Shown here: positions 3,905-25,469 of the stretch, piece by piece | Layout of the letters: each line of letters opens with the position of its first letter | How positions within the stretch are numbered: the first letter of the stretch is position 1 | DNA from: Arcobacter sp. | GTDB lineage: Bacteria; Campylobacterota; Campylobacteria; Campylobacterales; Arcobacteraceae | Direction of reading: 5' to 3' | DNA: 64,000 nt | Assembly (NCBI GenBank): GCA_002869565.1 | Contig: PKUJ01000006.1 | Span: 67,270-131,269 of the forward strand | The notes under the pieces: model-generated | The model's database searches: none | The model's input: the letters and a program-made list of their open reading frames with translations, nothing else | What the model was told of the DNA's origin: nothing | Position numbers and translations under genes: made by a program

Positions 3905-4729
3905 ATGTTTACAAAAATTTTAAAATTTACAATTGCTGCGGGATTAGCCTTAGGCCTTACTGCTTGTACAAAAGATGAAAAGAAAGAGAATACAAGTGCA
4001 AAAGTTGAAGCAAAGAAAACTGTTATCAAAGTTGGAGCGACACCAGTTCCTCATGCTGAGATTTTAGAAGTAATAAAACCTTTGCTTAAGAAAAAAGGTT
4101 ATGATTTACAGATAGTTGAGTTTACAGATTATGTTACTCCAAATATTGCTGTTGATGAAGATGAACTAGATGCCAACTTTTTTCAACATACTCCATATTT
4201 GACTGAATTTAATTCAAATAAAAATACTAATTTAGTAAAAACTGTTGGGGTTCACTTAGAACCAATGGGATTATATTAAAAAAAAATCAAATCACTAGAT
4301 GAGCTAGAAGATGGTGCTACAATAGCTGTACCCAATGACCCAACAAATGAGAGCAGAGCTTTAGACATTTTGGAAAAACAAGGTCTTATGAAATTTAAAG
4401 AATTAGCTCTTAAAACTGCACTGGATGTAATAGAAAATCCAAAAAATATCCAATTAAAAGAGCTTGATGCTCCTCAATTACCAAGAGTTTTAGATGAAGT
4501 TGATGCAGCTATTATCAATACAAACTATGCTTTATCAGCAGATTTAAACCCAACAGAAGATGCTATTGTTATTGAATCAAAAGATTCTCCATATGTTAAT
4601 ATTGTAGCCGTTAAAAAAGGTAATGAAAATAAAGATTATATTAAAGCATTGGATGCGGCTTTAAATTCTGATGAAGTTAAACAATTTATTATAGAAAAAT
4701 ACAAAGGTTCTATTGTACCTGCATTTTAG
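3905..4729 (+). pseudogene. metQ: metQ, methionine-binding lipoprotein, interrupted by an in-frame TAA
   Basis: The frame runs 275 codons, the normal MetQ length, but codon 125 (4277-4279) is TAA. The two halves lie in the same frame: the first ends EPMGLY, the second continues KKIKSLDELEDGA and then AVPNDPTNESRAL, exactly the order in intact MetQ. Family members usually have Ser at this place, so TCA to TAA is the simplest change. It is not an indel, although it touches a run of nine A. The N-terminus is a lipoprotein signal with lipobox LTAC. With metN and metI intact, either the importer has lost its own binding protein or the assembly has a base error. Confidence 0.85.
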
Positions 4730-8766: not shown

Positions 8767-9705
8767 ATGGATAAATTAGTAATTGCAACAAGAAGAAGTC
8801 AACTAGCTTTATGGCAAAGTGAGTATATAAAAGCAGAGTTAAAAAAGTTTTACCCAAATATGGAAGTTGAGCTTCAAGAGTTTGTAACAAAAGGTGATAA
8901 GATTTTAGATGTACCATTAGCAAAAATTGGAGGAAAAGGTCTTTTTACAAAAGAACTTGAAGTTGCAATGCTAAATGGAGAAGCTCACTTGGCTGTGCAT
9001 TCTCTTAAAGATGTACCAACACAATTTGAAGAGGGTTTACAACTTGCAGCTGTTACAAAAAGATTTGATCCAAGAGATGCTTTTTTAAGTAATAAATATA
9101 TTTCTTTAGATGATTTACCAAAAGGTGCAGTAGTTGGAACTACAAGTTTAAGAAGAAGAATGGCTTTAAAACTTTTAAGACCTGATATTGAATTAAAAGA
9201 TTTAAGAGGAAATATTAATACTAGAATAGCAAAGTTAAATGCTGGTGAATATGATGCAATTATATTAGCAGCTACTGGTATTCAAAAACTTGGAATTGAA
9301 AATGAAGTAAAACATTTTTCTCATATTTCAACCGATTCTATGATTCCTTCAATGGGACAAGCAACTTTAGGAATTGAAACTACTACTGACCCTAAAATTG
9401 TTGAAATTGTTTCTGTTTTAAATGATAAAGATGCACATATTGAATCAACAATTGAAAGAAGCTTCGTTGATAAATTACAAGGTGGTTGTCAAGTTCCAAT
9501 AGGAGTAAAAGCAACTATTATAGATGAAAATTCTATTAGAGTTCAAGCTATTGTTGGAATGCCTGATGGAAGTGAATATATTGAAGAAGATATTACTGCA
9601 AGTATTGAAAAATATGAAATAATAGGGCAAAATTTAGCTCAAACTTTTATTGATCAAGGTGCTAAAGAACTTCTTGAACGTGCTGAAAAAGTAGCTTTTA
9701 AATAG
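8767..9705 (+). CDS. hemC: Hydroxymethylbilane synthase (porphobilinogen deaminase) HemC
   Basis: Polymerises four porphobilinogen units into hydroxymethylbilane in haem synthesis. 312 residues, full length. It shows the N-terminal ATRRSQLALWQS, the VHSLKDVPT block with its catalytic aspartate, GTTSLRRRMAL, DLRGNINTR, and the GGCQVPIG motif whose Cys carries the dipyrromethane cofactor. Last gene before a terminator. Confidence 0.96.
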   Translation: MDKLVIATRRSQLALWQSEYIKAELKKFYPNMEVELQEFVTKGDKILDVPLAKIGGKGLFTKELEVAMLNGEAHLAVHSLKDVPTQFEEGLQLAAVTKRFDPRDAFLSNKYISLDDLPKGAVVGTTSLRRRMALKLLRPDIELKDLRGNINTRIAKLNAGEYDAIILAATGIQKLGIENEVKHFSHISTDSMIPSMGQATLGIETTTDPKIVEIVSVLNDKDAHIESTIERSFVDKLQGGCQVPIGVKATIIDENSIRVQAIVGMPDGSEYIEEDITASIEKYEIIGQNLAQTFIDQGAKELLERAEKVAFK

Positions 9706-9710
9706 TAATA

Positions 9711-9733
9711 TAAGAAGGGCTTTCCCCTTCTTA
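9711..9733 (+). terminator. Terminator after hemC
   Basis: Stem TAAGAAGGG (9711-9719) pairs with CCCTTCTTA (9725-9733), five-base loop, six bases after the hemC stop; the following U-run is weak (CAAATTT). Confidence 0.65.
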
Positions 9734-9781
9734 CAAATTTCGCATACAACTTTTAAAGTCCTAGCTAAAACATAGAAAAAA

Positions 9782-10954
9782 ATGATAAAGAGTAATAGAA
9801 TGTTTAAATATGTATTAATTCTATGTGTAATTTCAAGTCAGTTATTTGGTACGGATTTTAGATTAAGCGATAATGCTGGGTATTATATATTTACTTTTCT
9901 AGTTATTATAGTTCTTTTTTGTGTGTTTTTAGTCTGGTATATTTATAAGAAAACAAAAATAAAAGGGCTTATTATTTTGTTTTCTTTGTGCTTACTTATT
10001 TATTCTTTTTTTCTAATTCAGGACTCTACCCGAGATAAAAATTTTGAAAAAAAGAGCATTGATTTTTATCATAATGCCTTGTGTGTAAAAAATATTGATT
10101 TTGATGATATAGCCCAAGCAAATGTAAATAAAGTTATGACAAGAATCAAACAGAAAGGTTATTACAAAAAAGAAGCGAATCTTGTAATGCAATGCATGCA
10201 GAAGCAATTAGATGAAAAAAAATTGTTGCGTAAAAATAGAGTTACAAAATCAGAATGTCAAAAAAATCCTTATTCATTAGTTGAGATAAAAAATTTTATC
10301 ATAGAATATTACTATTATACGCCTGGTACTAAAGATGAGTCTTATGAGTTATATTTAGAAAATGCAAAGAAGTGTATTTCTACAAATAAATCTTTTTTTG
10401 CGAAACCTTCTATGCTTCTTTTCCAATATAATTATTTTGTTCTTGGTAATAAGAATAATGGCCTTAATATAGTCTATGAAATGTTAAAAGAGAATAGTGA
10501 TGATCAGCTAGGTTGGATATATTATTATTTAACTAATGATGGCTGTTATTTCTATCATAAGGATTATCAATCTGAAAAACCTTTTGAAAAAGTTTGTTCA
10601 ATTAAGCCATTATCTTTAGGTTATTCAAGCAATGCTGAACGTTGTTCTCTCAATGATTGTTCATTTCAAGACTATGCACTGGCCTTGTTTAAATCTAAAA
10701 ATGATAAAACAACTATGGCAAGTGTGAAGATAAAAAACCCTAAAGAAGAAGCTCTTTATACGATTGATTATTCTGTATTAGAAAAAAATAAAACAGTCGA
10801 CAAAAATGGATTTATATATTTTAAATATACACGAGGGAATGACTTTGGGGGATCGTATAAAGAACAGTCAGAAGAAATTCTTCAAAGAGAATATTTTTTT
10901 ATGCCCATTGAAATAAATTTAGATGAATTAAATACAAAAAAGAAAGATAGATAA
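9782..10954 (+). CDS. Exported/membrane protein of a private family (member 1)
   Basis: 390 residues, function unknown. A signal-type N-terminus (the ATG at 9800 gives a cleaner signal, MFKYVLILC...LFG) is followed by two hydrophobic helices (about 33-75) and a soluble region with many cysteines. The C-terminal ~100 residues look like a small beta domain: YTIDYS, then DKNG.IYFKYTRG. The same blocks occur in the 18219 gene (PYTILDQ, DENGYGTFTYIKGS), and the Cys-containing YYLTNDGC block recurs at 18219 (YYAFTKDNC) and 19169 (YYLLTKDEC). So this is an outlying paralogue of two genes in the operon 2 kb downstream. Confidence 0.6.
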   Translation: MIKSNRMFKYVLILCVISSQLFGTDFRLSDNAGYYIFTFLVIIVLFCVFLVWYIYKKTKIKGLIILFSLCLLIYSFFLIQDSTRDKNFEKKSIDFYHNALCVKNIDFDDIAQANVNKVMTRIKQKGYYKKEANLVMQCMQKQLDEKKLLRKNRVTKSECQKNPYSLVEIKNFIIEYYYYTPGTKDESYELYLENAKKCISTNKSFFAKPSMLLFQYNYFVLGNKNNGLNIVYEMLKENSDDQLGWIYYYLTNDGCYFYHKDYQSEKPFEKVCSIKPLSLGYSSNAERCSLNDCSFQDYALALFKSKNDKTTMASVKIKNPKEEALYTIDYSVLEKNKTVDKNGFIYFKYTRGNDFGGSYKEQSEEILQREYFFMPIEINLDELNTKKKDR

Positions 10955-12113: not shown

Positions 12114-14192
12114 ATGAAAATCATTTTTACATTATTTTTACTTTTTATAAGTTTAAATGCACTTGAAATAGAATTAGTTTCTAAGATTAAAGAAAAAGAT
12201 TTCAATTATCTTTTCAGAAAAGAAGTCATTTCCTATTTAAACAAACCTTTAAAAAATATTCCAGAAAATATCTCTTCAGAGGATTTACTAACTATTGCTG
12301 ATTTTTATTTAGAAAATAGAGATATATATGCAAACTCAGTACCAAAAGCTTTATATTTTTATACCTTAGCAGTAAAAAAGAAAAATCAATTGGCTCGTGT
12401 AAAAATAATAGATTTATATCTTAAAACCCATGAAAATAATAGAGCTTATTTATATGCTTCTAAAATACTATCAAGATTGAAAGCTGTATATGTAAATGAG
12501 CTTTATAAGGTTTTTGATGAAAATCATCAAGAAGATTACTTAAAAGAATTAGAGAATTATATAGAAAAGAAAAATTTACCCAAGTCTTCACTTTATTATG
12601 TAAGAAAGATAAAGGAGGATTTTTATGAAGATACTAGTAAGAAAGTATCAAAAAGTTTAATTAATGAAATTTATAATCAATCTTGTGAAGTTTTAATAGC
12701 AGTAGGAAATCTATATCATACTAAATTATATTCTGATAAGAGAGCTATAGAGTTTTATGAAACGTGTTTATTGAAAGAACCTAATCGTGCAGATGCATAT
12801 AAAGAACTTACACTTTTATATAACAGAAATGCTTTAGAGTTTGATAAGGGAAAATCAAAACAAGTATATGAAAAAAGTTTTCAGATGGGAGACTTCAACG
12901 GTGGAATAGCTCTTATCAATCATTATAAAAATGTTACAAAAGATTTAGAAGCTTATAAATTATATAAAGAAGAACTATCAAAATCTATTTTAGGTCAAAA
13001 AGTACTTGTAAAATATTATCAAATGACAAAAAATAGGGATTTAGCCAATAGATTTCTTACAAAACTAGCTCTATCTGGTGATGAAGAATCTATGTTAGAA
13101 CTAGTATTCAATGGAGGTTATACCTATACTTATTATAGTAGGGAGCAAAAAGAATTATCTTTACAATGGTTTAATAAAATCATGAATATGGATGATGATA
13201 AAAAGTTAAAGAGTGATTTGATTGAAAGGTTATTTTATGGAAATGAAAATGGTTCTTTTATTGAATATAAACAAAAAATCTATAAAAGTAAACTTGTTCG
13301 AAACAATGTAAAATATTTACGTGAACTTTTCAATAAATCTAAAAATAAATATCCAAAAAAAGCACTTAACTTTTTGAATCAAGCTGTTGATTTAGGAGAT
13401 AAAAAAAGTATAAGAATTTTAAGTGATTATTATAAAAATGGGAAAATAGTAAAAAAAGATGAAAAAAAAGCAATAAAGGTATTAAAGCCTTTAGTTCAAT
13501 TAAAAGATAGTGATACTATCTCTTATTTAGCAAATATTTATTATACACCAGCAGAAAATGTTTTTACCTCTGTGTCAAAGGATGAAGAAAAAGCACTTGA
13601 ATATATGATGATTCCTGAGATTCAAGATACTACAACTGCAATAAGTGATTTAGCTTATTATTATTTGTCATATAAAGATTATAAAAATGCAATAAAATAT
13701 TTAAAAAAACTCTCAATTAGAGGTTATACCCATGAGAGTATGATCTTAGCAAATATTTATGAGAAGGGTTTATCTGGCAATATAAACTATAAAAAGGCTT
13801 TAGGGTATTATTTTAAAGCAGCAGAGTTTAAAGATGCAAATGCTTTATATAAAATTGGAATGTACTATGTTGAAGGAAAATCTGTAAAAGTAGATTACAA
13901 AAAGGCCTTAGATTTCTTTTTTAAAGCTTCAGCTTATAATAAAAGTGCAGTATTTATGATAGCACTAATGCATGAACATGGTAAAGGTATAGAAAAAAAC
14001 CTTGATGAAGCAATTTATTATTATCTAAAAGTTGCTAATGAACATCCTGTAGCAGCATTTAATTTGGCAAATATTTATCATTATAATCAAAATAAAAGAG
14101 ATTTTATAAATGCAAAATTTTGGTATGAGAAATCATCACTACCAAAAGCAAAAATAGAATTAGAAAGACTAACCAAGGAAATGGCAATATGA
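12114..14192 (+). CDS. Secreted Sel1/TPR-repeat protein 1
   Basis: 692 residues with a signal peptide (1-16, FISLNALE). The rest is alpha-helical repeats. Clear Sel1-like units near the C-terminus have the pattern ALYKIGMYYVEGKSVKVDYKK and then ALDFF.KAS, about 36 residues each; the N-terminal part has more degenerate TPR-like units. Sel1 proteins are protein-binding scaffolds; here the location should be periplasmic. First gene of a seven-gene operon (12114-23041); its stop overlaps the next start (ATGA at 14189-14192). AAGGAG lies just before the ATG. Confidence 0.75.
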   Translation: MKIIFTLFLLFISLNALEIELVSKIKEKDFNYLFRKEVISYLNKPLKNIPENISSEDLLTIADFYLENRDIYANSVPKALYFYTLAVKKKNQLARVKIIDLYLKTHENNRAYLYASKILSRLKAVYVNELYKVFDENHQEDYLKELENYIEKKNLPKSSLYYVRKIKEDFYEDTSKKVSKSLINEIYNQSCEVLIAVGNLYHTKLYSDKRAIEFYETCLLKEPNRADAYKELTLLYNRNALEFDKGKSKQVYEKSFQMGDFNGGIALINHYKNVTKDLEAYKLYKEELSKSILGQKVLVKYYQMTKNRDLANRFLTKLALSGDEESMLELVFNGGYTYTYYSREQKELSLQWFNKIMNMDDDKKLKSDLIERLFYGNENGSFIEYKQKIYKSKLVRNNVKYLRELFNKSKNKYPKKALNFLNQAVDLGDKKSIRILSDYYKNGKIVKKDEKKAIKVLKPLVQLKDSDTISYLANIYYTPAENVFTSVSKDEEKALEYMMIPEIQDTTTAISDLAYYYLSYKDYKNAIKYLKKLSIRGYTHESMILANIYEKGLSGNINYKKALGYYFKAAEFKDANALYKIGMYYVEGKSVKVDYKKALDFFFKASAYNKSAVFMIALMHEHGKGIEKNLDEAIYYYLKVANEHPVAAFNLANIYHYNQNKRDFINAKFWYEKSSLPKAKIELERLTKEMAI

Positions 14193-16174
14193 AAGTATTA
14201 AATAAAATATTTTTAAGTATTTTTTTACTTATTTCTATCTTAGATGCAAGTAATTTATCTGAAAAAGATTATATAAAAAAAGCAAACAGTGGTAATATTG
14301 AAGCGATGATTGAGTTATATGATAATTATCCATATTTTTTACGTACTAAAACTGGTAGAGATTTATATGAAAAGTGGTACAAAAGTATTTTAAAGTCTAA
14401 AGATACAAAAAAATTATCAAAGTTTATAGAGATTTATAATACATATCCAGATTATTTTATCAATCAGATGGATAAAATAAAAAAACTTTATGAGTTAAAA
14501 AGTAAAGTAGGAACATTAGATGACACCATAGACTTGATTTTAGAATATTATAGAATAAATAAATACAAATACAAAAAAATTTATAAAACAATTGAAAAAA
14601 AAGCTACTATCGATCAACTATTAAAATTAGAAAAATCATATTATTTGGGTGATTATGCAAAAAAAGAGTTAGAAAGAAGAGGATATAAAACTACGGTTGA
14701 TTTATATAATCAATTACGAAATTTGTCTAATAAAAAAGAATTAGAAACTTTAAAAGAAAAAATTCTTTCAAGCAAGAATGTAGATGATTTAAATAGTTTA
14801 GCTAGATATTTTAATTCAGAAGATCAAAAGATTAAAGCAATTGAAACATATAAAAAAGTTCTAAGTTTAGATGCTAAAAATTATGTTGCTTTATCAAATT
14901 TATCAAAAATATGTTTTTATAGAAGTGGGCTTAGTATAGAAGATGAAGAAGATGCTGTTAAGTATTCTAAATTAGCTATAGAATATCATCAAAGTATTCC
15001 AAGCATGTTGAGATTGCTAGAGATGTATAAAGAGGATATTAAGTATTTAGATTTATTTCCATATGCTGTAAATCAACTTATGAAATCAACTGAAGGAAAA
15101 GAGAAGTTACGACAGTTTTATTACAAAAGAGAAATGAATGAATATGGAAATAAATTATCAGAACAACTTGCAAAAGAGGGCGATATCTATGCCATGACAG
15201 ACCTTATAATCAATTATAAAATATATCCATTTAGGAATTCTAGTGATTTTAGTCATGAGATTGAGGGGAAAAAGATATATTGGATAAATCATATTATTGA
15301 ATCAAAAAATAAAAATTTTATAAGTAAAATGTATGAGAGTCGCCTAAAACATGATATGCAATTTGTCAGTAATACCAAGCCATATGAAAAATTTGTTTTG
15401 GAAAATGAAGATATTATTGGTATGAGAAATTTAAGAAAAATATTTGAAAAGCAGTTGATTCAAATGGATGATATACAAAGTATTTTTAAAATTGCAGACT
15501 CTTACTTATATGGAAAAACAGTAGAAGGTAGTAAAAAAGCTTTAGAGATTTATAATAGATTAGCTAAAAAAGGTGAAATTGCAGCTCTTTTAAAACTTGG
15601 GGATATTTATGGTTATGGTAAGGGTAATATAAAAGTAGATAAGAATAAAGCAATACTATATAATGAAAAGGCTGCCAAATTAGGTAGTAAAGAAGCTGTT
15701 AGTAATCTTACATATTACTATTGTTGTAATAAAAAGAAAGATCCTAAAATGGAAAAAAAGAGAATTAAGATACTTAAAAAAGGCGTAGAACTAGGTATCG
15801 AGAGAGCTATACTCTTATTAGCATATGAATATCATTATGGCGATATTATAAAAAAAGATTATAAAAAAGCAATTTATCATTATAATTTGATAAAAGATGA
15901 TAATAGTTATGCAATGAATAATTTGGGAAGTCTATATGAAAATGGGTTTGGGGTTAAGAAAGATTTGAATAAGGCTTTTAACTTTTTTACAAAATCATCT
16001 GAAAAAAGAAATGATTATGGTTTTTATAATTTAGGAAGATTTTATGAGCAGGGTATTTCTCCTGTAAAAAAAGATATTGAAAAAGCAATTTTTTATTATA
16101 AAAAAGCTGAAAATAATAGTGGTGCAAAAAAGCGATTAGCCATACTGTTAAATAATAAGAAAGGAAAACAATGA
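14189..16174 (+). CDS. Secreted Sel1/TPR-repeat protein 2
   Basis: 661 residues, paralogous to the genes before and after it. Signal peptide (1-20, LISILDAS). Sel1 units are clearest from about residue 435 on: ALLKLGDIYGYGKGNIKVDK, AMNNLGSLYENGFGVKKDLN and YGFYNLGRFYEQG. Both ends overlap the neighbours by ATGA, so the three Sel1 proteins are translationally coupled and probably made in similar amounts. Ligand unknown. Confidence 0.75.
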   Translation: MKVLNKIFLSIFLLISILDASNLSEKDYIKKANSGNIEAMIELYDNYPYFLRTKTGRDLYEKWYKSILKSKDTKKLSKFIEIYNTYPDYFINQMDKIKKLYELKSKVGTLDDTIDLILEYYRINKYKYKKIYKTIEKKATIDQLLKLEKSYYLGDYAKKELERRGYKTTVDLYNQLRNLSNKKELETLKEKILSSKNVDDLNSLARYFNSEDQKIKAIETYKKVLSLDAKNYVALSNLSKICFYRSGLSIEDEEDAVKYSKLAIEYHQSIPSMLRLLEMYKEDIKYLDLFPYAVNQLMKSTEGKEKLRQFYYKREMNEYGNKLSEQLAKEGDIYAMTDLIINYKIYPFRNSSDFSHEIEGKKIYWINHIIESKNKNFISKMYESRLKHDMQFVSNTKPYEKFVLENEDIIGMRNLRKIFEKQLIQMDDIQSIFKIADSYLYGKTVEGSKKALEIYNRLAKKGEIAALLKLGDIYGYGKGNIKVDKNKAILYNEKAAKLGSKEAVSNLTYYYCCNKKKDPKMEKKRIKILKKGVELGIERAILLLAYEYHYGDIIKKDYKKAIYHYNLIKDDNSYAMNNLGSLYENGFGVKKDLNKAFNFFTKSSEKRNDYGFYNLGRFYEQGISPVKKDIEKAIFYYKKAENNSGAKKRLAILLNNKKGKQ

Positions 16175-18222
16175 GAAGTTTATTACTACTTCTATTATCA
16201 TGTTTTATTATGTCGTTACACGCAAATATTGATTTAGGTATAAAAAAAGAAGATAAAGCTCTATTAATAAAAAAAGCTGAAAATAAAGATATCAATGCAA
16301 TACTTGATTTACATACTTATTATGATTTTCCAAATACCATTGAGGGTTTAAAATATTATAAAAAATGGTATGGAATGTTAGATTATTCTACAAACTCAGA
16401 GGGGCTTTATGAATTTACAAAAATTTTTCAAGAAAATTATAATAAGTTTATAAATGGAATTTTAAAAGTAAATTATTTAAATGAACTTTTACTAGAGAAA
16501 GGAGTTACTAAAGGCTTAGATGAATGGATAATATTTGCTTATAGAGATTCTTATTCTACTGCAGATGGGATTTATAACCGATACAAAAATAAGTTGAGCA
16601 AAGAACAGCTTGATATTTTAAGTGAATTTTTTTATAAAAGAATAGAATCTCGTCGATTAGAAGATCTAAAAGACGAATACAAAAAAAGGAATTTAGTACC
16701 TTCTGCCTTTATTTATTTAGAAGAGTATAGAAAACTTTATGATAACAAAGCCCAAAAAGATGCTTTTATTTCGAAAATATTGAAGTTTAAAGATGCCAAA
16801 TTACTAACGGTTTTTTCAAGAGAAATTTATAATAAGAACAAAGAATACGAAGTGGGATTAAAGCTTATGGAAAAAGCTTATAATATGGACGATTCTAGTG
16901 CAAGTACAATATTTAGGTTAGCTAATATGTATTTTAATATCAATCAAAAGGATAAAGCTATTGCCTTATATGAAAAGAATGTTAAACTAAATGCTAATCT
17001 TGATTCCGCTACAAAATTGTTATACATCTATGGTTCTGATAGTAAAAAATATCAAGAGTATGAAAAAATTAAAAAATTTCTAAAACAGAGTAGTGAAGGA
17101 ATATATATATTTGCTGATTATCTTTATGAAGAAAAACTTTTTTTAAGGGCAAATGATATTTTAGAACCTTTAGCTAAAGCTGGTGATTATAATGCCATAT
17201 TAAAATTAGTTGTTAAAAATGATACAAAAGAACTTTATTCAAAACCCCAACAAGTATATATTTCAGAGTTTTGGAGAAAAAAAATAGCAAATTTACAAAA
17301 TGAACAGATTATTAAACAATTTTATAGTGATCTTGGCAATAGCAAATATAATTATAAGAAAATAAAGGCTTGGGAAGAAAAAGAGCTAGAGAAATTTAAA
17401 TTAGACAGCTTATACCACACCGTAGCATCATATTCTAGGAGAGAGAGAAATAAAAAATATGAAGATAAAATTATAAGTAGTTCAGATGTAAGAAGTATTT
17501 TAGCATTAGCTTCAAAATTAATAAAGACGAAAGATGAAAAAAATATAAAAAAAGGACTTGAGCTATATTCTAATTTAGCTAATAAGGGTGATTTTGAGGC
17601 GACAAAAAGATTAGCTGAATATTATGGCACTACTTTTCAGAAAGAAACTATTGATATTTCTAAGCAACTTTATTATTACCAATTAGCTGAGAAAGCAGGG
17701 GATATTGATTCTTTGAGGATTTTAGCTAAGTTATATTTATGTATAGAATGTGATATGCCAAACTCTTATTATGCAAAAGAAGTTGCCCCATATAAAGAGT
17801 ATGTTGATTATAAAAAAGCTCTTTATTATAATCAAAAGGCTTTAGAAAAAGGTGTATATGGTTCAAATTTCAATTTAGCTTATATCTATGATAAGGGCAA
17901 AGGGGTAAAAAAAGATTATAAAAAGGCATTAGAGTATTATGCAAAAACAGAGCCAAAATCTTATGTTTATTATAGAATAGGGTATTTTAATGAACTGGGT
18001 TTGGGTACAAAAAAAGATATTAAAAAGGCATATGAAATGTATACGAAAGCTATGAAAGGTAAGCCTATTCTTGATGTAGCATATAGATTGGCAAAAATGT
18101 ATGAAAATGGAAATGAAGCTGTAAAACAAGATTTAAGTAAGGCTTTATATTTTTTTGAAAAACTAAGAATGGATGAGGATATTAAAAGAGTCAAAGAAAG
18201 ACTAAATAAAGAGAAAAAATGA
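16171..18222 (+). CDS. Secreted Sel1/TPR-repeat protein 3
   Basis: 683 residues, third tandem paralogue. Signal peptide (1-18, CFIMSLHA). A starting block about residues 35-60 (AILDLHTYYDFPNT...YYKKWYG) matches one in protein 2 (AMIELYDNYPYF...YEKWYK), showing the paralogy reaches beyond the Sel1 units. C-terminal Sel1 units: NFNLAYIYDKGKGVKKDYKK, YYRIGYFNELGLGTKKDIKK and AYRLAKMYENGNEAVKQDLS. Overlaps the next gene by ATGA. Confidence 0.75.
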   Translation: MRSLLLLLLSCFIMSLHANIDLGIKKEDKALLIKKAENKDINAILDLHTYYDFPNTIEGLKYYKKWYGMLDYSTNSEGLYEFTKIFQENYNKFINGILKVNYLNELLLEKGVTKGLDEWIIFAYRDSYSTADGIYNRYKNKLSKEQLDILSEFFYKRIESRRLEDLKDEYKKRNLVPSAFIYLEEYRKLYDNKAQKDAFISKILKFKDAKLLTVFSREIYNKNKEYEVGLKLMEKAYNMDDSSASTIFRLANMYFNINQKDKAIALYEKNVKLNANLDSATKLLYIYGSDSKKYQEYEKIKKFLKQSSEGIYIFADYLYEEKLFLRANDILEPLAKAGDYNAILKLVVKNDTKELYSKPQQVYISEFWRKKIANLQNEQIIKQFYSDLGNSKYNYKKIKAWEEKELEKFKLDSLYHTVASYSRRERNKKYEDKIISSSDVRSILALASKLIKTKDEKNIKKGLELYSNLANKGDFEATKRLAEYYGTTFQKETIDISKQLYYYQLAEKAGDIDSLRILAKLYLCIECDMPNSYYAKEVAPYKEYVDYKKALYYNQKALEKGVYGSNFNLAYIYDKGKGVKKDYKKALEYYAKTEPKSYVYYRIGYFNELGLGTKKDIKKAYEMYTKAMKGKPILDVAYRLAKMYENGNEAVKQDLSKALYFFEKLRMDEDIKRVKERLNKEKK

Positions 18223-19166
18223 AAAAATACTTTTTAATAATTTTTCTTTTTGCTACTCTTAATTTACATGCAATTGGGGATGCACCGTCTGATCTTGGGA
18301 AATATATATGGATTTTAAAACCATTAATTGATGTAGGGAGTGTTATAGTAAAAGTTTCACCAAAAGAAGCATCAAAAAGACTTAACGACTATGAACAAGT
18401 TTTCTGTGTAGGTAGAGATAATAAAGGGTGGCGTGTAAACTACATCTTAGACGATGATAGTTTACATGATGAAGAAATAATAGATTTTATGTATGATTAT
18501 TATACAGATAAGCAAAATAAAGTTTTAGGAAGAAAACATAAAAAAATTTTACAATGCCTTATCAAAAATGATGACATCAATAAAACAGAAAGACTTAAGT
18601 TTGCTTATGCATTTTTCATTGAAGAGAATTATGCTAAGGTGATTGAAAGATTACGTTCTTATTGTTTCTCTGGTGATGAGTATTCATTATGGATATATTA
18701 TGCATTTACAAAAGACAATTGTCAGTTGTATAACTTTCATCAAAAAGATAAAAAAAATTATATCCCAATATGCCCAAATAAGATTGATTCTATATCAATA
18801 AATGATGCAAAAGAGATTTTTTACGAAAATTCTTATGCTTTTGAGTATAAAAGAAAGTATAAGCTTGAAGATTACACCATCGCTTTATTTGAAGATGAAA
18901 CACAACAAGAGACACAAGTAAAAATACAAGTAAATTATAAAAATAAACAAGTACCTTATACTATTCTTGACCAACACAAAAATACTTATCAAGAAAAGCG
19001 TATGTCAGATGAAAATGGATATGGAACATTTACATATATAAAGGGAAGTGAAAGATATTTTTTCACTTCTCCACAGAGACATAGCCTTATAACAGTTTTA
19101 GAGATAGTTTTAGATAAAGAAAAACTCTCTTCTTCAAATTTAGGTGAAAAATATAAAAACAAATAA
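18219..19166 (+). CDS. Secreted protein of a private family (member 2)
   Basis: 315 residues, unknown function. Signal peptide (1-18, LNLHA) followed by IGDAPSDLG, a block shared with the next gene (IGDGPAFRL). A central helical region holds the Cys-bearing IYYAFTKDNCQLYNF block. The C-terminal ~90 residues resemble the small beta domain of the 9782 protein (PYTILDQ, MSDENGYGTFTYIKGS). It lacks the extra transmembrane helices of its paralogues, so it is probably wholly periplasmic. Coupled to the Sel1 genes by ATGA. Confidence 0.6.
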   Translation: MKKYFLIIFLFATLNLHAIGDAPSDLGKYIWILKPLIDVGSVIVKVSPKEASKRLNDYEQVFCVGRDNKGWRVNYILDDDSLHDEEIIDFMYDYYTDKQNKVLGRKHKKILQCLIKNDDINKTERLKFAYAFFIEENYAKVIERLRSYCFSGDEYSLWIYYAFTKDNCQLYNFHQKDKKNYIPICPNKIDSISINDAKEIFYENSYAFEYKRKYKLEDYTIALFEDETQQETQVKIQVNYKNKQVPYTILDQHKNTYQEKRMSDENGYGTFTYIKGSERYFFTSPQRHSLITVLEIVLDKEKLSSSNLGEKYKNK

Positions 19167-19168
19167 AT

Positions 19169-19894
19169 TTGAGATTAAATCACTTGACTAAAATAATTTT
19201 AATTCTATGTTTAGCCACATCCTTATTTGCTATTGGTGATGGGCCAGCATTTAGACTAGAAGATATCTTACTTCTTTTAGGTGGTTTATTAAGCATAGTA
19301 GTATTAGCAGGTGTATTTTTATTTTTTTTATATAAGAAAAAATTGTTTAAAAAGGCATTTATAAGTATTTGTATAATTATTGCCTGTATGTTCATATATA
19401 AATATATTGCTACTGATTACAAACTTATGAGATTTTATTATATTTCATATTGTAAAAGTAATATGAACATAAAAGTTACTCGGAATTTTGGTAAATTTAT
19501 AAAAGCTTATTTAGAACCTGATATTTTAATAAAATTCACAAATATTCATAAAGAAACTCTTCCTTGTATTTTAGAAGATAAAGATTACTCTGAATATTAT
19601 GAGATGAAAGCAAAAATTGATTTATTGATTTATGTTAACTTTGAAGAAGCTGTTGATGACTTATATGAATACTTATTTTCAGATTATGCAAAACACTACT
19701 ATGTTCTTGAAAAAAACAATAGAGTTGTTTATTATCTTTTAACCAAAGATGAGTGTATGCTAAATAATCTTGATAAATATAAAACTACATGTACTAAAGC
19801 ACCTTTAAATAAAGAGTTTGCACAAATGAATTTAAATAGAATTAAAGAGTGTATATATACAGAAACAAATTGTTCTATTCCAATAAAGAAATAG
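19169..19894 (+). CDS. Membrane-anchored protein of a private family (member 3)
   Basis: 241 residues from TTG at 19169, two bases after the previous stop. Signal-like N-terminus (to SLFAIGDGP) then two helices (about 32-53 and 57-75) and a soluble part with the YYLLTKDEC block near the end. Compared with the 9782 and 18219 proteins it ends early: the C-terminal beta domain is missing. It may be a naturally short form or a truncated paralogue. Function unknown. Confidence 0.55.
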   Translation: MRLNHLTKIILILCLATSLFAIGDGPAFRLEDILLLLGGLLSIVVLAGVFLFFLYKKKLFKKAFISICIIIACMFIYKYIATDYKLMRFYYISYCKSNMNIKVTRNFGKFIKAYLEPDILIKFTNIHKETLPCILEDKDYSEYYEMKAKIDLLIYVNFEEAVDDLYEYLFSDYAKHYYVLEKNNRVVYYLLTKDECMLNNLDKYKTTCTKAPLNKEFAQMNLNRIKECIYTETNCSIPIKK

Positions 19895-19913
19895 AAAAAA
19901 GAAGGAAACTGTT

Positions 19914-21416
19914 TTGTTTGATGTTTTTGAAAAGTTAGTTGTATTTTGGGGTCTTGCAATTGTTATTTATATTTTGTATTTTATGTTAATAAATGAGCTT
20001 ATACCTAGGCTAAAAGGAGAGATGTCCCTTAGTCAAAAAACAGATAAGTTTTTAGAAGACTCTATATTAAAAGATAACTCCGAATTATTAGATGAGAGAG
20101 AGGCTACATTAAAAGAGAAACTTTATTTTCAAAATATAAAAGGTGGTTTTTTTGTAAGTTTTTTTATTTTAGCTTTTTTTATTTTTATATTTCTTTTAGA
20201 TATATATACTGTAAAGTATTCTTTGATTTTTCTTTTTCTATCAATAATATCTTTATATTTAAAACTATTTACAGATTTAAAAAAAGTTGGGCAGATAAGT
20301 AAAAAAGTCAAAACGATTAGGGGAACAGTTAGAAAAATACATATGAAAAGAAGTAGATATGATACAGATAGACTTCTTAGTATTGGAGATGAAGATTATT
20401 ATGTTTCTTCTGAATTTGAAATGCCAGAATATGCTTCATATGTGGAAATTGAGGTATATGACGATATTGAGTTAGTAAGAATAAATGAGCAAAAATTATT
20501 AGAAAATATAAATTTAGAAGAATTAAAAAATTCAAAGTTTTATCATAAAGCTATTGCAGTTACTTTTTTTATAACAACTATATTGTCTTTTTTAATATTA
20601 TATGATGATATTTATACTAATTTATCCATGAATATTTTATCTTTGGATAAAAAAGAAGTAGAGTATGTCAATGCAAATTCAATTAGAAAAAATCCACCTA
20701 AAATTGGACAGCGAATTGATATTTCTGGGTATAGAGTATGTAAAACTGAAAATTGCAAACTATTTTTACTTTTAGATAGACCAGTTAAATATGAAATAGA
20801 TAAAAATCTAGAAGTAAAAATTGAAATTCAAAAAGATGAAATAAATAGAATTAAAGAAGAAATATTTCATGAAAATACAAAGAAAATACATGATGCTTTT
20901 AATAAAAAGCTTCTTTCCGGAAAAATGCCAGATGTATATAAATATAATAAAGATTTAAGAGATGCAGCAAGAAATGTCCCATATAAGGGAACAGACATCT
21001 TAGATGTGGAAAAACATTGACTAGAAAATATAATTAACAATCGTTTTTTGTCAGAGGATAATCAAGTTATCATAAAATATTTAACATATACAAATTCATT
21101 TGAAAGTAAAGCTCACTTTAATGCTAAAACTTATCAAGATTTAGTTGAAGAGATAGATCATTCTACTAGAGTTTATGGACTAAAACTAATAGTTTATAAT
21201 TATTCCAAGAAAATTACTATCAATGGGAAAGAAGTGACTTTAATAACAGTAATAGATGATTTATCAGACGAAGAAATTTTAGACCATCAATTAATCAGTT
21301 TATATTTATTTATCTTAATATTTCTAACCCTTGTTCATGTGTTTTTAGGTTTTAGAAAAAAAACTACTGCAAGGGAAAAAGAGTTGGCAAATAGGATTAT
21401 TGAATATGATAAATAG
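19914..21416 (+). pseudogene. IgaA/UmoB-like membrane protein, interrupted by an in-frame TGA
   Basis: The frame from TTG 19914 stops at TGA 21018-21020 after 368 residues, and the same frame continues to 21416. Rejoined it is 500 residues with the layout of the intact paralogue next door: N-terminal helix, helix pair (about 80-118), cytosolic RGTVRKI domain, helix (about 212-230), periplasmic region opening with SGYRVCKTENC (Cys276, Cys281), and a last helix encoded after the stop (LFILIFLTLVHVFLGF). TGG (Trp) to TGA is the simplest change. If made as two pieces, the first lacks the final anchor. The IgaA resemblance is judged by eye. Confidence 0.6.
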
Positions 21417-21430
21417 TCTAAAGGATTAAA

Positions 21431-23041
21431 TTGGAAACTTTATATACATTTTTATTTTTTTTTATCGGTGTTGTTGGTTTATATGTAGGTTGGCAGACAG
21501 ATATCCTTCCAAAATTAAAAGGGGAATTAACATTAGATGAGTTAATTGATGAATTTGAAAAATATTCTATCTTAGAGAATGATTGTAGAATAATTTCTAC
21601 GCGTGATGCTACATTAAAAGAGGTATTATATTTTCAAAAAGTTCGTGCTTATTATTTTCCTATTTTTCTGTTTTTTGCATGTATTGTTACTGCCATTTTA
21701 TTAGATTTTGGGCATATATTAGTATCTTGTATTATTGTAATTGTTTTATTGATTTTATCATATATATTGCTCTTTAAGAATTTGAAAAGAGCAAAAGATA
21801 CAGGCGATAAAAAAGTCTTGCATATTAAAGGAACAGTAAGAAAAAATAATATAAGAGAAGAAAATCTAATGACTGTTGGCAAAAGAACTTATGGAATACC
21901 TGAAGGCTTTAAAAATCCAGAATACGGATCGATAGTAGAGTTTGAAGCTTATGAAGGGATATATATTTGTTCATTAAATAACAGATACTTACTAGAAAAT
22001 GAAAGTTTAGAAAAATTAAAAAATTGGAAAGGATATCATAGAACTATAGCTTATTCTTTGTTGGTGTTTTTATTTTTTTTTGGAATTAGTTATACAGAAA
22101 TAAAAAATGATTTTTTAGTAAATTCTTTATTTTTAAAAGAGAAAAATATAGAGTATTTAAATGCTAAGTCAATTTTTAATAATCCTCCTAAAAGTGCTCA
22201 AAGATTACATTTATCTGGATATAGATTGTGTGATGATGATATTTTGAACCCTTCACAGTGTAAGAACTTTTTTATTTTAGATAGAGATTTGATATTTGAG
22301 GGTAAATTAGAAATCAAAAATATTTTTAATATCAATCTAAATGATTTTATAAGTAGATATAGACCAAGTTCTGAGTTTTTAAAGAGTATAAATTCAATTA
22401 ATTCATATTATTCTATTCAATACACTAAAATCATAAATTTACAAAAGATAAAAGAGATGATATTAGAATTAAAACAAATAAACTCTAAAGAGATAAATAA
22501 GAAACTTGTAGAGTTATTATTTTTAATAAATGAAATTTATCAAAATAATTTAATCTCTGATAAAAAAGAAGATGTCATAATTATCAAAAAAAAGAATATA
22601 TTCTATAGTAAATTTAGAGAAGAGTTTTATAATTTTAAAATTTTTTTATTTAACTTTGAAAAGCAAAGACTAAAAAACTTTGTTTCGAAATATATTGATT
22701 CAATGAATAACAAAGTTTATATAAACTATATAGAAAATTTTTATTATAAAGATAGGGAAAGATATGATCCAAATATCTCAAAATATGAAAATTTACTAAA
22801 TAACTTTAATGAGTCAAAAAGAATGAATAATATCAAAGTAATAGTTTCTTCTGTCGAAGAAAAAATAGTCAAAAATAAAAAAGATATTGTAATAAATGTA
22901 TTTTCTGATGTAGATGATATAGATGAATCAGTACTTCTTGAATTTAAAATATATACTTTTTTATTAATATTTATTATATGTGCAATAATATATCACCTAT
23001 TCTTTGGTTTTATAGTTAATTTATTTAAAAGAAATAGGTGA
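21431..23041 (+). CDS. IgaA/UmoB-like five-helix inner-membrane protein
   Basis: 536 residues from TTG 21431 with AAAGGA upstream. Helices at about 3-22, 74-91, 96-115, 204-221 and 510-532, leaving a cytosolic domain (116-203) and a ~285-residue periplasmic domain. By eye it follows the order of IgaA, the enterobacterial brake on the Rcs stress pathway: a KGTVRK block after helix 3, a PEYGSIVEFEAY-type block, then after helix 4 NSLFLKEKNIEYLNAKSI, and RLHLSGYRLC with a second Cys (267 and 277). IgaA is about 700 residues, so this is a shorter relative at best. Its partner here could be the co-expressed Sel1 or private-family proteins; that is inference. Confidence 0.55.
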   Translation: METLYTFLFFFIGVVGLYVGWQTDILPKLKGELTLDELIDEFEKYSILENDCRIISTRDATLKEVLYFQKVRAYYFPIFLFFACIVTAILLDFGHILVSCIIVIVLLILSYILLFKNLKRAKDTGDKKVLHIKGTVRKNNIREENLMTVGKRTYGIPEGFKNPEYGSIVEFEAYEGIYICSLNNRYLLENESLEKLKNWKGYHRTIAYSLLVFLFFFGISYTEIKNDFLVNSLFLKEKNIEYLNAKSIFNNPPKSAQRLHLSGYRLCDDDILNPSQCKNFFILDRDLIFEGKLEIKNIFNINLNDFISRYRPSSEFLKSINSINSYYSIQYTKIINLQKIKEMILELKQINSKEINKKLVELLFLINEIYQNNLISDKKEDVIIIKKKNIFYSKFREEFYNFKIFLFNFEKQRLKNFVSKYIDSMNNKVYINYIENFYYKDRERYDPNISKYENLLNNFNESKRMNNIKVIVSSVEEKIVKNKKDIVINVFSDVDDIDESVLLEFKIYTFLLIFIICAIIYHLFFGFIVNLFKRNR

Positions 23042-23054
23042 TGTTTTTACTTGA

Positions 23055-23795
23055 TTATGGAGCTTCCCAAGGAATAACTTTTTCTTTTATATTAAAAAAA
23101 TCTTTGTCAATTTTGTCTCTAGATACTTCTAGAGATAAGTTGTTTATGTTGAGATTTTTACATTGATTTTTTGTTAATATTGCTGCTGCTATAGCATTTT
23201 TTGTATAAGGTCTCATTATATCCAGGTTATATTTTATTTTTTGAGAATTCCCATAAAACTTTAATAAAGGATCATAAAAGGCAACTTTTCTTGGAATTGT
23301 ATGATGTTGTGTAAAGAGTGGATCATCAACAACACTATTTGCCACTTCCCATAGTTTTTTTGAAACCAATGCACACCCTTCAAATGTATAGTCTAATCCT
23401 AAATGCCCCATAGGCCCATCAATATGATAGATAGCATATCTATAATCAATTTTTGTTATATCATATCCAGCCACTTCAAAAGTCTCTATTTTAGGATTGG
23501 TTTTAATATCAATTTGCATCTCCATATCTAACCAATACTTGTCAAGGTCTCTTTCTTTTGAAGTGGGGGAAATAGTTTTTCTAAAAAATTTATTACCATC
23601 CCTCCATTCAAGAAAACCAGAAAAATCTTGATAAAAGTTGATTTTATAGATTTTATTATTAATAGAGAATACTTCTATGTTTTTTCCATATTGTGTTGTA
23701 TACAAATCATCTTTATTTTTAAAATTTATAGTTAAATTCTCTGCAAATAAAATATTTGAGAAGATTAAAACTAGAACTAATAATATTTTCTTCAT
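23055..23795 (-). CDS. Secreted protein, unknown
   Basis: 246 residues with a signal peptide (1-18, NILFAE). No family recognised. The mature part has GPMGHLGLDYTFEGCALVSK and two cysteines. It lies last in a minus-strand trio (25479, 23808, 23055; gaps of 9 and 12 bases) that runs head-on into the Sel1/IgaA-like operon, only 13 bases from its end. Confidence 0.6.
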   Translation of the reverse strand: MKKILLVLVLIFSNILFAENLTINFKNKDDLYTTQYGKNIEVFSINNKIYKINFYQDFSGFLEWRDGNKFFRKTISPTSKERDLDKYWLDMEMQIDIKTNPKIETFEVAGYDITKIDYRYAIYHIDGPMGHLGLDYTFEGCALVSKKLWEVANSVVDDPLFTQHHTIPRKVAFYDPLLKFYGNSQKIKYNLDIMRPYTKNAIAAAILTKNQCKNLNINNLSLEVSRDKIDKDFFNIKEKVIPWEAP

Positions 23796-23807
23796 TGTTT
23801 TCCCTTT

Positions 23808-25469
23808 TTATGGTTTTATTTTCATATCAAATGGTATAGTGATTCTTATCTTTTTATCAACCGCTTTAACAATATACAATTTATCTATTATTCCTGTAAA
23901 CTGAGCTTTTGGGTAGTACTCTTGGTACTCCCCTTCTTTTTTTAAAGATTTAGATTTATAATACCAATCAAAATCTGCTAACTGTAAGTATTTCCCATTT
24001 TTATTTTTAGGCCACATCATTCTTGAAACAAATGGTAATAAGGGATTTGTACTCTTTAATTTTTTATCAAAACCAAACTCTTCTAAGTTAATCACCGCAG
24101 CAGAATTATTATTTTCAAAAACTATTTTTTTATTTGGCTTATTTGGAGTAAACTCCAAAAATTCGACTTCTAGTGGATATAAAAAAGAGTAAGTTCCTTT
24201 GATTCTATTTGGTACAATTTTTCTATCTTTTGTATAACTAACAAAACCTTTTTGCTTTTTTCTGCCATGAGAACTTGTTGTTTGCTCAGTAGAAAGAACT
24301 TTATCATCGTGCAAAAGTTGAAAATTATCAATTTGTAAATCCATACTATTAAAAACATAAATTTCACTATTTGCGATTTGAGGAAATTGTATTCCAAAAT
24401 TAGTTTTATATAGATCTTTCTCATAATGATCTAAATAAGCGTAAAGTTTTGTATCTTTTTTCACATCCTCTTCACTTATAGATTCAAACTTAGGCATTGT
24501 ATAGTCTGCTTTTTCTTCAATATTGTACTTTGACCAATCCATCTTATCACTGTGAAAATTTAGTTTTACCTCTTTTTTAACTTTTTTCCAATCACCATCT
24601 GCTTGAATTACAAATCTAAACTCTTCAATATCACCTTGATAGGCATCTGAATAAATCGTAGCTGTGTCATACACTTTATTTAACTCTTCTTGATACATTG
24701 TTTTAGCTTCTTCATCGCTTATATTGCGAGCATTGATTTTCTCTTTTATCGTTTTTTTAAACTCTTCAAGACCCTCTTTTTTATATGAAGAAGTCATCAT
24801 CATAGTGTTCAAATATTTTTTCTCTTTTGATTGAGCAAATGCTTTAAATTCATAATGATTACTTTTATATAAATAATCAAAATACAATCGTTTATCTGGT
24901 GCAATTCTAATAGATACTTTATTCTCAACCATAGATAAAAGCTTAACTTTAAAGCCATCTATAACTTTCTCTTTTCCTAGTTCATCTTTTTTAAATGTGA
25001 AGATAGCTCTTTTTTTTGGGTACCAATAAACAACATTTGTAGATATATATTTAAGCTTTGAAGAATCAAAGTCTTTATCAAATTTTTTCTTATAAATAGA
25101 ATCATAATCCTCTACTACTTTTGTAATGACTGATTTACCATCTAAAAAAGTGATTTTAATATTTTCTTTATCAATATTTCCAGCATAATTGGCGTAAGAA
25201 AAGATTTGCTTATTATCTTTTTTAATAAAATATGTATTTTTTGCTTTTTCTATTCTTTGTAAGTAAACTTCTTCTGGCGAAGGATTGAAATATGCCTCGT
25301 CAACTTCAACAGTCTGCTCTGGTTCATTCCACTCTTTAAGTGCATATTCAAAAGCATCAATCATTTTAAAAGCATTTAACTCTTTATCTATATCAAATGC
25401 ATTTAAAACATTTAAATTAGCGAGTAGTATAAAAGCTAGAGTGAATAAGTTATATTTGTTGTTTTTCAT
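23808..25469 (-). CDS. Large secreted protein, unknown
   Basis: 553 residues. N-terminal signal (about 1-24, ending VLNAFD). The mature protein is lysine- and aromatic-rich with no cysteine-rich or repeat region and no motif I recognise; much of it looks beta-rich (short alternating hydrophobic stretches). Middle gene of the minus-strand trio, so it is probably made together with the 765-residue repeat protein upstream. Confidence 0.6.
   Translation of the reverse strand: MKNNKYNLFTLAFILLANLNVLNAFDIDKELNAFKMIDAFEYALKEWNEPEQTVEVDEAYFNPSPEEVYLQRIEKAKNTYFIKKDNKQIFSYANYAGNIDKENIKITFLDGKSVITKVVEDYDSIYKKKFDKDFDSSKLKYISTNVVYWYPKKRAIFTFKKDELGKEKVIDGFKVKLLSMVENKVSIRIAPDKRLYFDYLYKSNHYEFKAFAQSKEKKYLNTMMMTSSYKKEGLEEFKKTIKEKINARNISDEEAKTMYQEELNKVYDTATIYSDAYQGDIEEFRFVIQADGDWKKVKKEVKLNFHSDKMDWSKYNIEEKADYTMPKFESISEEDVKKDTKLYAYLDHYEKDLYKTNFGIQFPQIANSEIYVFNSMDLQIDNFQLLHDDKVLSTEQTTSSHGRKKQKGFVSYTKDRKIVPNRIKGTYSFLYPLEVEFLEFTPNKPNKKIVFENNNSAAVINLEEFGFDKKLKSTNPLLPFVSRMMWPKNKNGKYLQLADFDWYYKSKSLKKEGEYQEYYPKAQFTGIIDKLYIVKAVDKKIRITIPFDMKIKP

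What the first reader, a model, noticed from the sequence alone, without database searches (positions are those of the whole stretch)
12114..23041. Seven-gene envelope operon: three secreted Sel1 proteins, two private-family proteins, two IgaA-like membrane proteins
ATGA overlaps join 12114-18222 to 18219, and gaps are short thereafter. All products are predicted in the inner membrane or periplasm. The combination of Sel1 scaffolds with IgaA-like proteins is not one I know. It may be an envelope-stress sensing system in which Sel1 or private-family proteins bind the periplasmic domain of the IgaA-like protein, as RcsF does with IgaA in enteric bacteria.
Basis: inference. Interest (0 to 1): 0.75.

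Follow-up and report, generated by a model that had tools for sequence, protein, structure and literature searches.

The report
Distant IgaA relatives beside Sel1 genes
One bacterial strain carries a stretch of strain-specific genes with two distant relatives of IgaA, the membrane brake of the enterobacterial Rcs stress response, next to three secreted Sel1-repeat proteins; the IgaA resemblance is real, but a partnership between them is unproven.

Summary
The genes are real and tightly packed: three ATGA overlaps, then short gaps. One correction: 19914-21020 and 21048-21416 are two parts of one IgaA-like gene split by an in-frame TGA at 21018, so only 21431-23041 is intact. A profile of 29 IgaA relatives gives 45.9 and 42.9 bits; 3,000 shuffles reach at most 14.5. 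The cysteines of IgaA's essential disulfide (C404-C425) and residue R188 are kept. IgaA's first cytoplasmic domain and RcsF-contact residues are not, and RcsF and RcsD were not found in the genome, so this is hardly an Rcs brake. The island is absent from 14 of 14 informative same-genus stretches. The two other carriers among 104 same-family genomes have a lone gene, and the private family is convincing only here among 398 genomes. Most likely: a five-helix membrane relay whose periplasmic domain listens to a partner, perhaps the co-encoded Sel1 or private proteins, and whose second cytoplasmic domain acts on an unknown target. Identity is well supported; mechanism is inference.

The parts
9782..10954 (+). 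private-family paralogue (390 aa, hydrophobic N-terminal part, Cys-containing soluble part), outside the operon but in the same variable region
   Evidence: blastp with 18219 E 6.6e-9, with 19169 E 3e-5 when 19169 is the query; lies between hemC and an isochorismatase-like gene, where the sibling stretches have only a short gap
12114..14192 (+). Sel1-repeat protein 1 (692 aa), exported by its N-terminal hydrophobic segment (inference)
   Evidence: PF08238 70.3 bits; paralogous to 14189 and 16171
14189..16174 (+). Sel1-repeat protein 2 (661 aa)
   Evidence: PF08238 115.3 bits; ATGA overlap; PDB Sel1 proteins match
16171..18222 (+). Sel1-repeat protein 3 (683 aa)
   Evidence: PF08238 69.5 bits; blastp with 14189 over 650 columns, E 4e-34 and 2e-31
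18219..19166 (+). private-family protein (315 aa), N-terminal hydrophobic segment
   Evidence: only own-genome matches are convincing in 398 genomes
19169..19894 (+). private-family protein, short form with hydrophobic N-terminal part (241 aa)
19914..21020 (+). IgaA-superfamily protein, N-terminal part of an interrupted gene: helices 1-4, second cytoplasmic domain, Cys pair C276/C281, R62
   Evidence: superfamily HMM 47.9 bits for this ORF alone, 45.9 for the gene read through; TGA at 21018-21020; residues
21048..21416 (+). C-terminal remainder of the same gene (end of periplasmic domain and helix 5)
   Evidence: same frame; aligns with residues 424-527 of the 21431 product; 10.3 bits, E 0.042, to the HMM; no visible ribosome-binding site
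21431..23041 (+). intact IgaA-superfamily protein (536 aa), hydrophobic segments at 1-26, 71-121 (long enough for two helices), 206-224 and 497-534; R58, C267/C277
   Evidence: superfamily HMM 42.9 bits; topology; residue mapping

Best explanation
The cluster is a strain-specific accessory island whose main operon encodes three secreted Sel1-repeat proteins, two proteins of a private family and two tandem members (one interrupted, one intact) of a superfamily that also contains IgaA. SHOWN by computation: co-linear, partly overlapping genes; remote homology to IgaA with its five-helix layout, R188 and the C404-C425 cysteines; lack of IgaA's first cytoplasmic domain; no RcsF or RcsD found in the genome; absence of the island from the same place in sibling genomes. 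INFERRED: the IgaA-like protein spans the inner membrane, forms the conserved periplasmic disulfide, senses the state or binding of a periplasmic partner, most likely one of the co-encoded Sel1 or private proteins, and passes it through the membrane to its second cytoplasmic domain (OB-like in a weak model), which restrains or recruits an unknown, non-Rcs cytoplasmic partner. It would work like IgaA in layout, with different input and output partners.
For: Superfamily HMM: 45.9 bits (19914 read through), 42.9 (21431), 20.2 (relative L004); the best of 1,000 block shuffles of each are 12.2, 7.5 and 14.5, none reaching the real score. Of the other 59 of 62 window ORFs the best scores 7.4 bits. 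With seven make-ups of the profile the two window proteins beat their best shuffle in 12 of 14 cases; three divergent gamma members alone give 34.0 (21431), 21.1 (19914) and 23.7 (L004). In a 14-row alignment the only invariant columns are the two cysteines; R188 is kept in 13 of 14. C404-C425 is essential and R188 important in Salmonella IgaA (PMC5744062, abstract and passages). The three proteins of the host's family group together, support 100/99. First cytoplasmic domain: 8% of E. coli positions 36-154 filled; second: 89 and 95% of 255-338. Best PDB match of the model: 4uzm, IgaA cytoplasmic domain, Z 7.6, rmsd 3.2, 90 residues; next 5.2. Gene overlaps suggest translational coupling.
Against: Linkage of Sel1, private and IgaA-like genes is seen in this one genome, so an operon-wide function rests on gene order alone. 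Pfam's IgaA model gives no match. Profile-profile comparison with Enterobacteriaceae IgaA alone was not significant: 10 of 200 and 24 of 200 column shuffles scored as high. The two failures of the 14 profile cases: Enterobacteriaceae-only profile with 21431 (-5.0 bits) and tandem-gene profile with 19914 (1.9 bits). RcsF-contact residues and the second Cys pair are not conserved. Models: mean pLDDT 38.2 and 48.2; Foldseek found nothing at E <= 0.001, and the tool warns that Z under 8 can be a common arrangement. No partner, signal or output was tested.
Confidence: 0.4

Rival explanations
1. Unrelated accessory genes collected in a variable slot: the IgaA-like pair are true remote IgaA relatives, but they work alone or are relics, and the Sel1 and private genes are neighbours without a shared mechanism.
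For: The slot varies among siblings in content and length, 432-10,559 nt in the 14 informative stretches, some of which share content; the two other carriers in the family have a lone IgaA-like gene; one of the two copies is interrupted.
Against: Three ATGA overlaps and short gaps through eight ORFs suggest one transcript and coupled translation for the first four genes; the products have N-terminal or several hydrophobic segments, as exported or membrane proteins do.
Confidence: 0.35
2. An immunity or inter-strain conflict array: tandem, fast-diverging secreted and membrane paralogues that protect against or take part in contact-dependent antagonism.
For: Paralogues in three families, strain-restricted, AT-rich (GC 0.246 against 0.276 for the window); tandem IgaA-like arrays also occur elsewhere.
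Against: No match to 5,027 PADLOC models at E <= 0.01 for the 10 proteins given; no effector or secretion gene noticed by eye in the listed window ORFs; IgaA itself is a regulator.
Confidence: 0.12
3. A complete envelope-stress system of Rcs type with RcsF, RcsC, RcsD and RcsB equivalents.
For: IgaA relatives are present; secreted candidates for an RcsF-like role sit in the same operon.
Against: RcsF and RcsD_ABL families not found in the 99.74% complete genome; RcsF-contact residues L472, I476, M481 and L483 are not kept, and the cytoplasmic domain that does most of the repressing of Rcs in E. coli is missing (PMC5978795 and PMC13317618, passages).
Confidence: 0.06
4. The IgaA similarity is a chance match of membrane proteins with like composition.
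For: Local profile-profile test with Enterobacteriaceae IgaA alone is not significant; two of 14 profile cases fail.
Against: HMM scores far above 3,000 block-preserving shuffles and above the 59 other window ORFs; functional residues coincide.
Confidence: 0.04

Closest known systems
IgaA (YrfF) of Enterobacteriaceae, Pfam PF07095
   Same: Five-helix layout, R188 and C404-C425 positions, second cytoplasmic domain, large periplasmic domain; significant by a broadened profile
   Different: First cytoplasmic domain, second Cys pair and RcsF-contact residues missing; not detected by Pfam; RcsF and RcsD_ABL not found in the genome; tandem; beside Sel1 genes
Tandem IgaA-like genes between ilvH-like and pyrG-like genes (by eye) in small gamma genomes (unnamed G532, G654, G587, G664; from memory perhaps bee-gut Orbaceae)
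   Same: IgaA-superfamily genes duplicated side by side
   Different: The rows that I aligned keep the first cytoplasmic domain and both Cys pairs; no match to the window's Sel1 or private proteins within the fetched stretches
Lone IgaA-like gene of G131 (L004) and G197, same family as the host genome
   Same: L004 groups with the window proteins, 100/99, and keeps the Cys pair
   Different: L004 keeps most of the first cytoplasmic domain (74% of positions) and lacks the second (11%), and R188 is not aligned; it stands among unrelated genes. In G197 the gene lies at two contig ends
Sel1-repeat regulators such as ExoR, which binds a sensor kinase in the periplasm (recalled)
   Same: Exported Sel1 repeats as possible periplasmic adaptors
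   Different: The ExoR model gives only E 0.088 and 0.38 against a cut-off of 450 bits: repeat similarity, not membership

Membership tests
IgaA proper (PF07095) | Match over Pfam's curated cut-off of 25 bits | tested here: not met
   No match at E <= 1 for the proteins or E <= 10 in the genome (E. coli control rang)
IgaA superfamily (broadened here) | Profile similarity above shuffled controls | tested here: met
   45.9 and 42.9 bits against shuffle maxima 12.2 and 7.5; 12 of 14 cases with other make-ups of the profile
IgaA superfamily (broadened here) | Five transmembrane helices with the large soluble domain between helices 4 and 5 | tested here: met
   Hydropathy of 21431: segments 1-26, 71-121 (room for two helices), 206-224, 497-534; layout of IgaA in PMC5978795
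IgaA superfamily (broadened here) | Cysteines at IgaA C404 and C425 | tested here: met
   14 of 14 rows
IgaA superfamily (broadened here) | Arginine at IgaA R188 | tested here: met
   R58 in 21431, R62 in 19914; 13 of 14 rows, L004 the exception
IgaA proper (PF07095) | First cytoplasmic domain (contacts RcsD) | tested here: not met
   8% of E. coli positions 36-154 filled in both window proteins
IgaA proper (PF07095) | Second cysteine pair C498/C504 | tested here: not met
   N/S in 21431, gap in 19914
IgaA proper (PF07095) | Fold of the periplasmic domain (9biy, 9biz, 9bj0) | tested here: inconclusive
   That part of the model has pLDDT mostly under 50; no such chain among the rows shown
IgaA proper (PF07095) | Cytoplasmic domain fold (4uzm) | tested here: inconclusive
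   Top match Z 7.6, rmsd 3.2, 90 aligned, but the model is low-confidence and its alignment held IgaA rows
Rcs phosphorelay | RcsF and RcsD in the genome | tested here: not met
   PF16358 and PF16359 no match at E <= 10; E. coli rang as control
Rcs phosphorelay | RcsC and RcsB in the genome | not tested
Sel1-repeat proteins (PF08238) | Sel1 repeats over Pfam's cut-off | tested here: met
   70.3, 115.3 and 69.5 bits, cut-off 30.7

The most novel reading that the evidence does not exclude
The IgaA module is older and wider than the Rcs system: a conserved transmembrane relay (R188 at the membrane, disulfide C404-C425 in the periplasm) that different lineages plug into different inputs and outputs. 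Here it is wired without Rcs to secreted Sel1 and private-family partners of the same operon, and in some gamma genomes it is multiplied in tandem. RcsF and RcsD binding would then be enterobacterial additions.
Probability: 0.3. Interest if true: 0.75.

Novelty: new variant of a known kind. Interest (0 to 1): 0.5.

Why it matters
The IgaA papers that I saw treat the protein within enterobacteria and the Rcs phosphorelay (PMC5744062, abstract and passages; PMC5978795 and PMC13317618, passages). Relatives that keep R188 and the essential cysteines, in a genome where RcsF and RcsD were not found, help to separate what is core to IgaA from what is Rcs-specific, and give small natural variants in which to ask what the module does by itself. 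My full-text searches found no paper that names IgaA together with Gilliamella, Alteromonadales or Sel1 or IgaA homologs outside Enterobacterales in the five terms; for Arcobacter two papers hold each term once (listing only).

Tried and rejected
Direct IgaA tests that failed: Pfam and NCBIfam scans, PF07095 on the genome, hhalign with one or 15 Enterobacteriaceae IgaA sequences and with column shuffles, the three-row profile against five enterobacterial genomes (nothing at E <= 10) and against PDB sequences (only an ER membrane subunit, two sequences, at E 0.15). In one search the -glob setting gave 1 of 200 and 5 of 200 shuffles as high, but it had aligned the last helix of 21431 with the first of IgaA, so I do not count it. 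I think that these tests failed because both sides were shallow; divergent intermediates solved it.

Structure: model 1 (two rows) pLDDT 38.2, not used. Model 2 (32 IgaA rows added) pLDDT 48.2; only residues 51-60 and 131-180 are fair (block means 66-73). IgaA's periplasmic chains 9biy, 9biz and 9bj0 are not among the rows shown.

Rejected hits: L006-L009, L177-L179, L011 and the 10 other private-family genomes at E 0.001-0.01 look like chance: short stretches, some with stops. No relatives on plasmids for 21431 or 18219. Defence library: none for the 10 proteins given. Phage library, 8 proteins given: 9782 has a weak hit, E 0.0032. The first genome-contig scan found no relative. Promoter-like and terminator-like sites are at shuffle level.

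Selections: 29 IgaA rows were chosen by hand from 77 loci, E. coli K-12 and the loci and fetched stretches's 44 genomes; A6 has 14 rows. Stretches were fetched for 17 of the 44 genomes, and ORFs were read for 10 of these 17. L126 was too short to judge the slot. A genome-wide search with the Sel1 proteins was not made; their absence from siblings is shown only for the stretch after hemC.

From memory, named by no call: Orbaceae, alteromonad-like, my belief that the host is Arcobacteraceae, and by-eye gene names such as hemC, prpF, ilvH and pyrG.
Full report
WHAT IS THERE. The window is bases 67270-131269 of contig C4 of a 3.49-Mb, 42-contig genome, 99.74% complete. Between 12114 and 23041 eight ORFs run on one strand. 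The first four are joined by ATGA overlaps at 14189, 16171 and 18219; later gaps are 2, 19, 27 and 14 nt. The first three products are Sel1-repeat proteins (PF08238 at 70.3, 115.3 and 69.5 bits, cut-off 30.7), paralogous beyond the repeats, each with an N-terminal hydrophobic segment. 18219 and 19169 belong to one small family, with a third member at 9782.

ONE GENE OF THE PAIR IS INTERRUPTED. 19914-21020 and 21048-21416 are in the same frame. The only stops in 19914-21416 are TGA at 21018 and the final TAG; 0 of 2,000 base shuffles had so few. The first part matches 21431 over residues 2-296 and the second over 424-527. I see no ribosome-binding site before 21048. The finding's seven genes are thus six intact genes and one interrupted one. 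Another gene of the window, at 3905-4729, also has a single inner stop, TAA at 4277, which makes a sequence error, or a strain that is losing genes, worth checking. In E. coli, full repression needed co-expression of N- and C-terminal IgaA portions (PMC5978795, passages), so a split protein is not necessarily dead; for this one that is speculation.

IS IT IGAA? By standard libraries, no: no PF07095 match. Profile-profile comparison with Enterobacteriaceae IgaA put the best local alignment in the expected register (window residues 127-269 on IgaA 254-405), but 24 of 200 and 10 of 200 column shuffles did as well. The answer came from intermediates. PF07095 searched in 345 genomes of the order of Kosakonia sacchari (L050, genome G373) gave matches in 44, 42 of them over the cut-off, including divergent genes (L167, L168, L170) and tandem genes in small genomes (L157-L160). 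An HMM of 29 such proteins scored 45.9 bits for 19914 (read through), 42.9 for 21431 and 20.2 for the lone relative L004. Of 1,000 shuffles of each, keeping hydrophobic and soluble blocks apart, the best were 12.2, 7.5 and 14.5, and none reached the real score; the best of the other 59 window ORFs scored 7.4. Over seven make-ups of the profile, the full one included, the two window proteins beat their best shuffle in 12 of 14 cases; the Enterobacteriaceae-only profile failed for 21431 (-5.0 bits) and the tandem-gene profile for 19914 (1.9). L004 did so in 6 of 7.

WHAT IS CONSERVED. In a 14-row alignment the two invariant columns are C267 and C277 of 21431, which are C404 and C425 of IgaA; R58 falls on R188, kept in 13 of 14. 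In Salmonella the C404-C425 disulfide is essential for repression, and R188 is called important for function (PMC5744062, abstract and passages). The second pair, C498/C504, is kept in all 11 gamma rows and in none of the three rows of the host's family. The residues named as most critical for RcsF binding (L472, I476, M481, L483; PMC13317618, passages) are kept as a set only in the three Enterobacteriaceae rows, though the alignment is least sure there. The first cytoplasmic domain, which does most of the repressing in E. coli (PMC5978795, passages), is absent from both window proteins (8% of positions) but mostly present in L004 (74%), which lacks the second (11%). The three proteins group together with support 100/99; the root is unknown.

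STRUCTURE. AlphaFold2 with two rows failed (pLDDT 38.2). With 32 IgaA rows added it rose to 48.2, with block means of 66-72 for residues 131-180 and 73 for 51-60. [quoted passage not shown] the next rows, many of them OB-fold proteins by their titles, were at 5.2 or below. In that alignment 21431 fills only 15 of the 119 positions of the 4uzm region, so this is not mere copying of that region, but IgaA rows were in the input and Foldseek alone found nothing at E <= 0.001. I count it as suggestive.

DISTRIBUTION AND LINKAGE. In 104 genomes of the host's family only three have a match: the own genome, G131 and G197. With the broader profile, 6 of 397 genomes of the phylum match at E <= 0.01, of which I find only the same three convincing. 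hemC was found in 16 of 16 genus genomes; I fetched the stretch after it in the other 15. One (L126) ends too early. In the other 14, six flanking genes of the window (hemC, isochorismatase, prpF, aconitase, citrate-synthase-like, prpB; names by eye) are all present, and no island protein matches at E < 1e-8. The slot between the isochorismatase gene and prpF is 432-10,559 nt there, with other genes, against 16,313 nt in the window. The gap between hemC and isochorismatase is under 180 nt in all 15 and 1,353 nt here, where 9782 sits. The private-family profile matched 11 of 398 genomes at E <= 0.01; apart from the own genome all lie between 0.001 and 0.01. In three stretches of G131 and G197 and 17 gamma stretches round IgaA-like genes, no window Sel1 or private protein matches at E <= 0.01. 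Linkage is therefore a single observation. A genome-wide search with the Sel1 proteins was not made.

RCS. RcsF (PF16358) and RcsD_ABL (PF16359) gave no match in the genome; E. coli rang as control in both. RcsC and RcsB were not tested.

HOW IT MAY WORK. The safest inference is a membrane relay of IgaA layout with a periplasmic disulfide domain as receiver and the second cytoplasmic domain as output, tied to something other than Rcs. The tight operon makes the Sel1 or private proteins the obvious candidates for the periplasmic partner, but nothing here shows it, and an unrelated collection of accessory genes in a variable slot is nearly as likely. Identity as a remote IgaA relative: about 0.93. 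Strain-specific island: about 0.95. Relay with co-encoded periplasmic partners: about 0.4. These are my judgements, not computed.

VERDICT. Not filed as IgaA proper, since defining features of it were tested and not met; a remote member of a broader IgaA superfamily. New variant of a known kind.

Noticed in passing
L157-L160 (unnamed gamma genomes G532, G654, G587, G664): Two or three IgaA-superfamily genes (506-866 aa) in tandem between ilvH-like and pyrG-like genes (by eye; in L158 two other genes lie there too); in L159 a cyclic-nucleotide-regulator-like ORF (9261-9974, by eye) lies between two of them.
   Followed up: partly
L167 8494-10545, L168 8214-10307, L170 8406-10307: Divergent IgaA-superfamily genes, one per fetched stretch, that keep R188 and both Cys pairs; they were the bridge to the window proteins. 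Whether these genomes have Rcs was not tested.
   Followed up: partly
window 25479-27776 (-): 765-aa repeat protein (DUF4116-like, below Pfam's cut-off) with a very strong match to phage families of unknown function (phrog_5925, E 9.4e-82).
   Followed up: no
window 23055-25469 (-): Two further proteins with an N-terminal hydrophobic segment and no Pfam family over its cut-off, also absent from the sibling stretches.
   Followed up: partly
window 3905-4729: A substrate-binding lipoprotein (MetQ-like by eye) after its ABC transporter genes is interrupted by one in-frame TAA at 4277: a second gene of this window with a single inner stop.
   Followed up: partly
L116 7806-18365 (G335): The same chromosomal slot in a sibling holds, among others, a 1,706-aa secreted-looking protein, a 621-aa lipoprotein-like TPR protein and a 207-aa protease-like protein, all by eye.
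   Followed up: no
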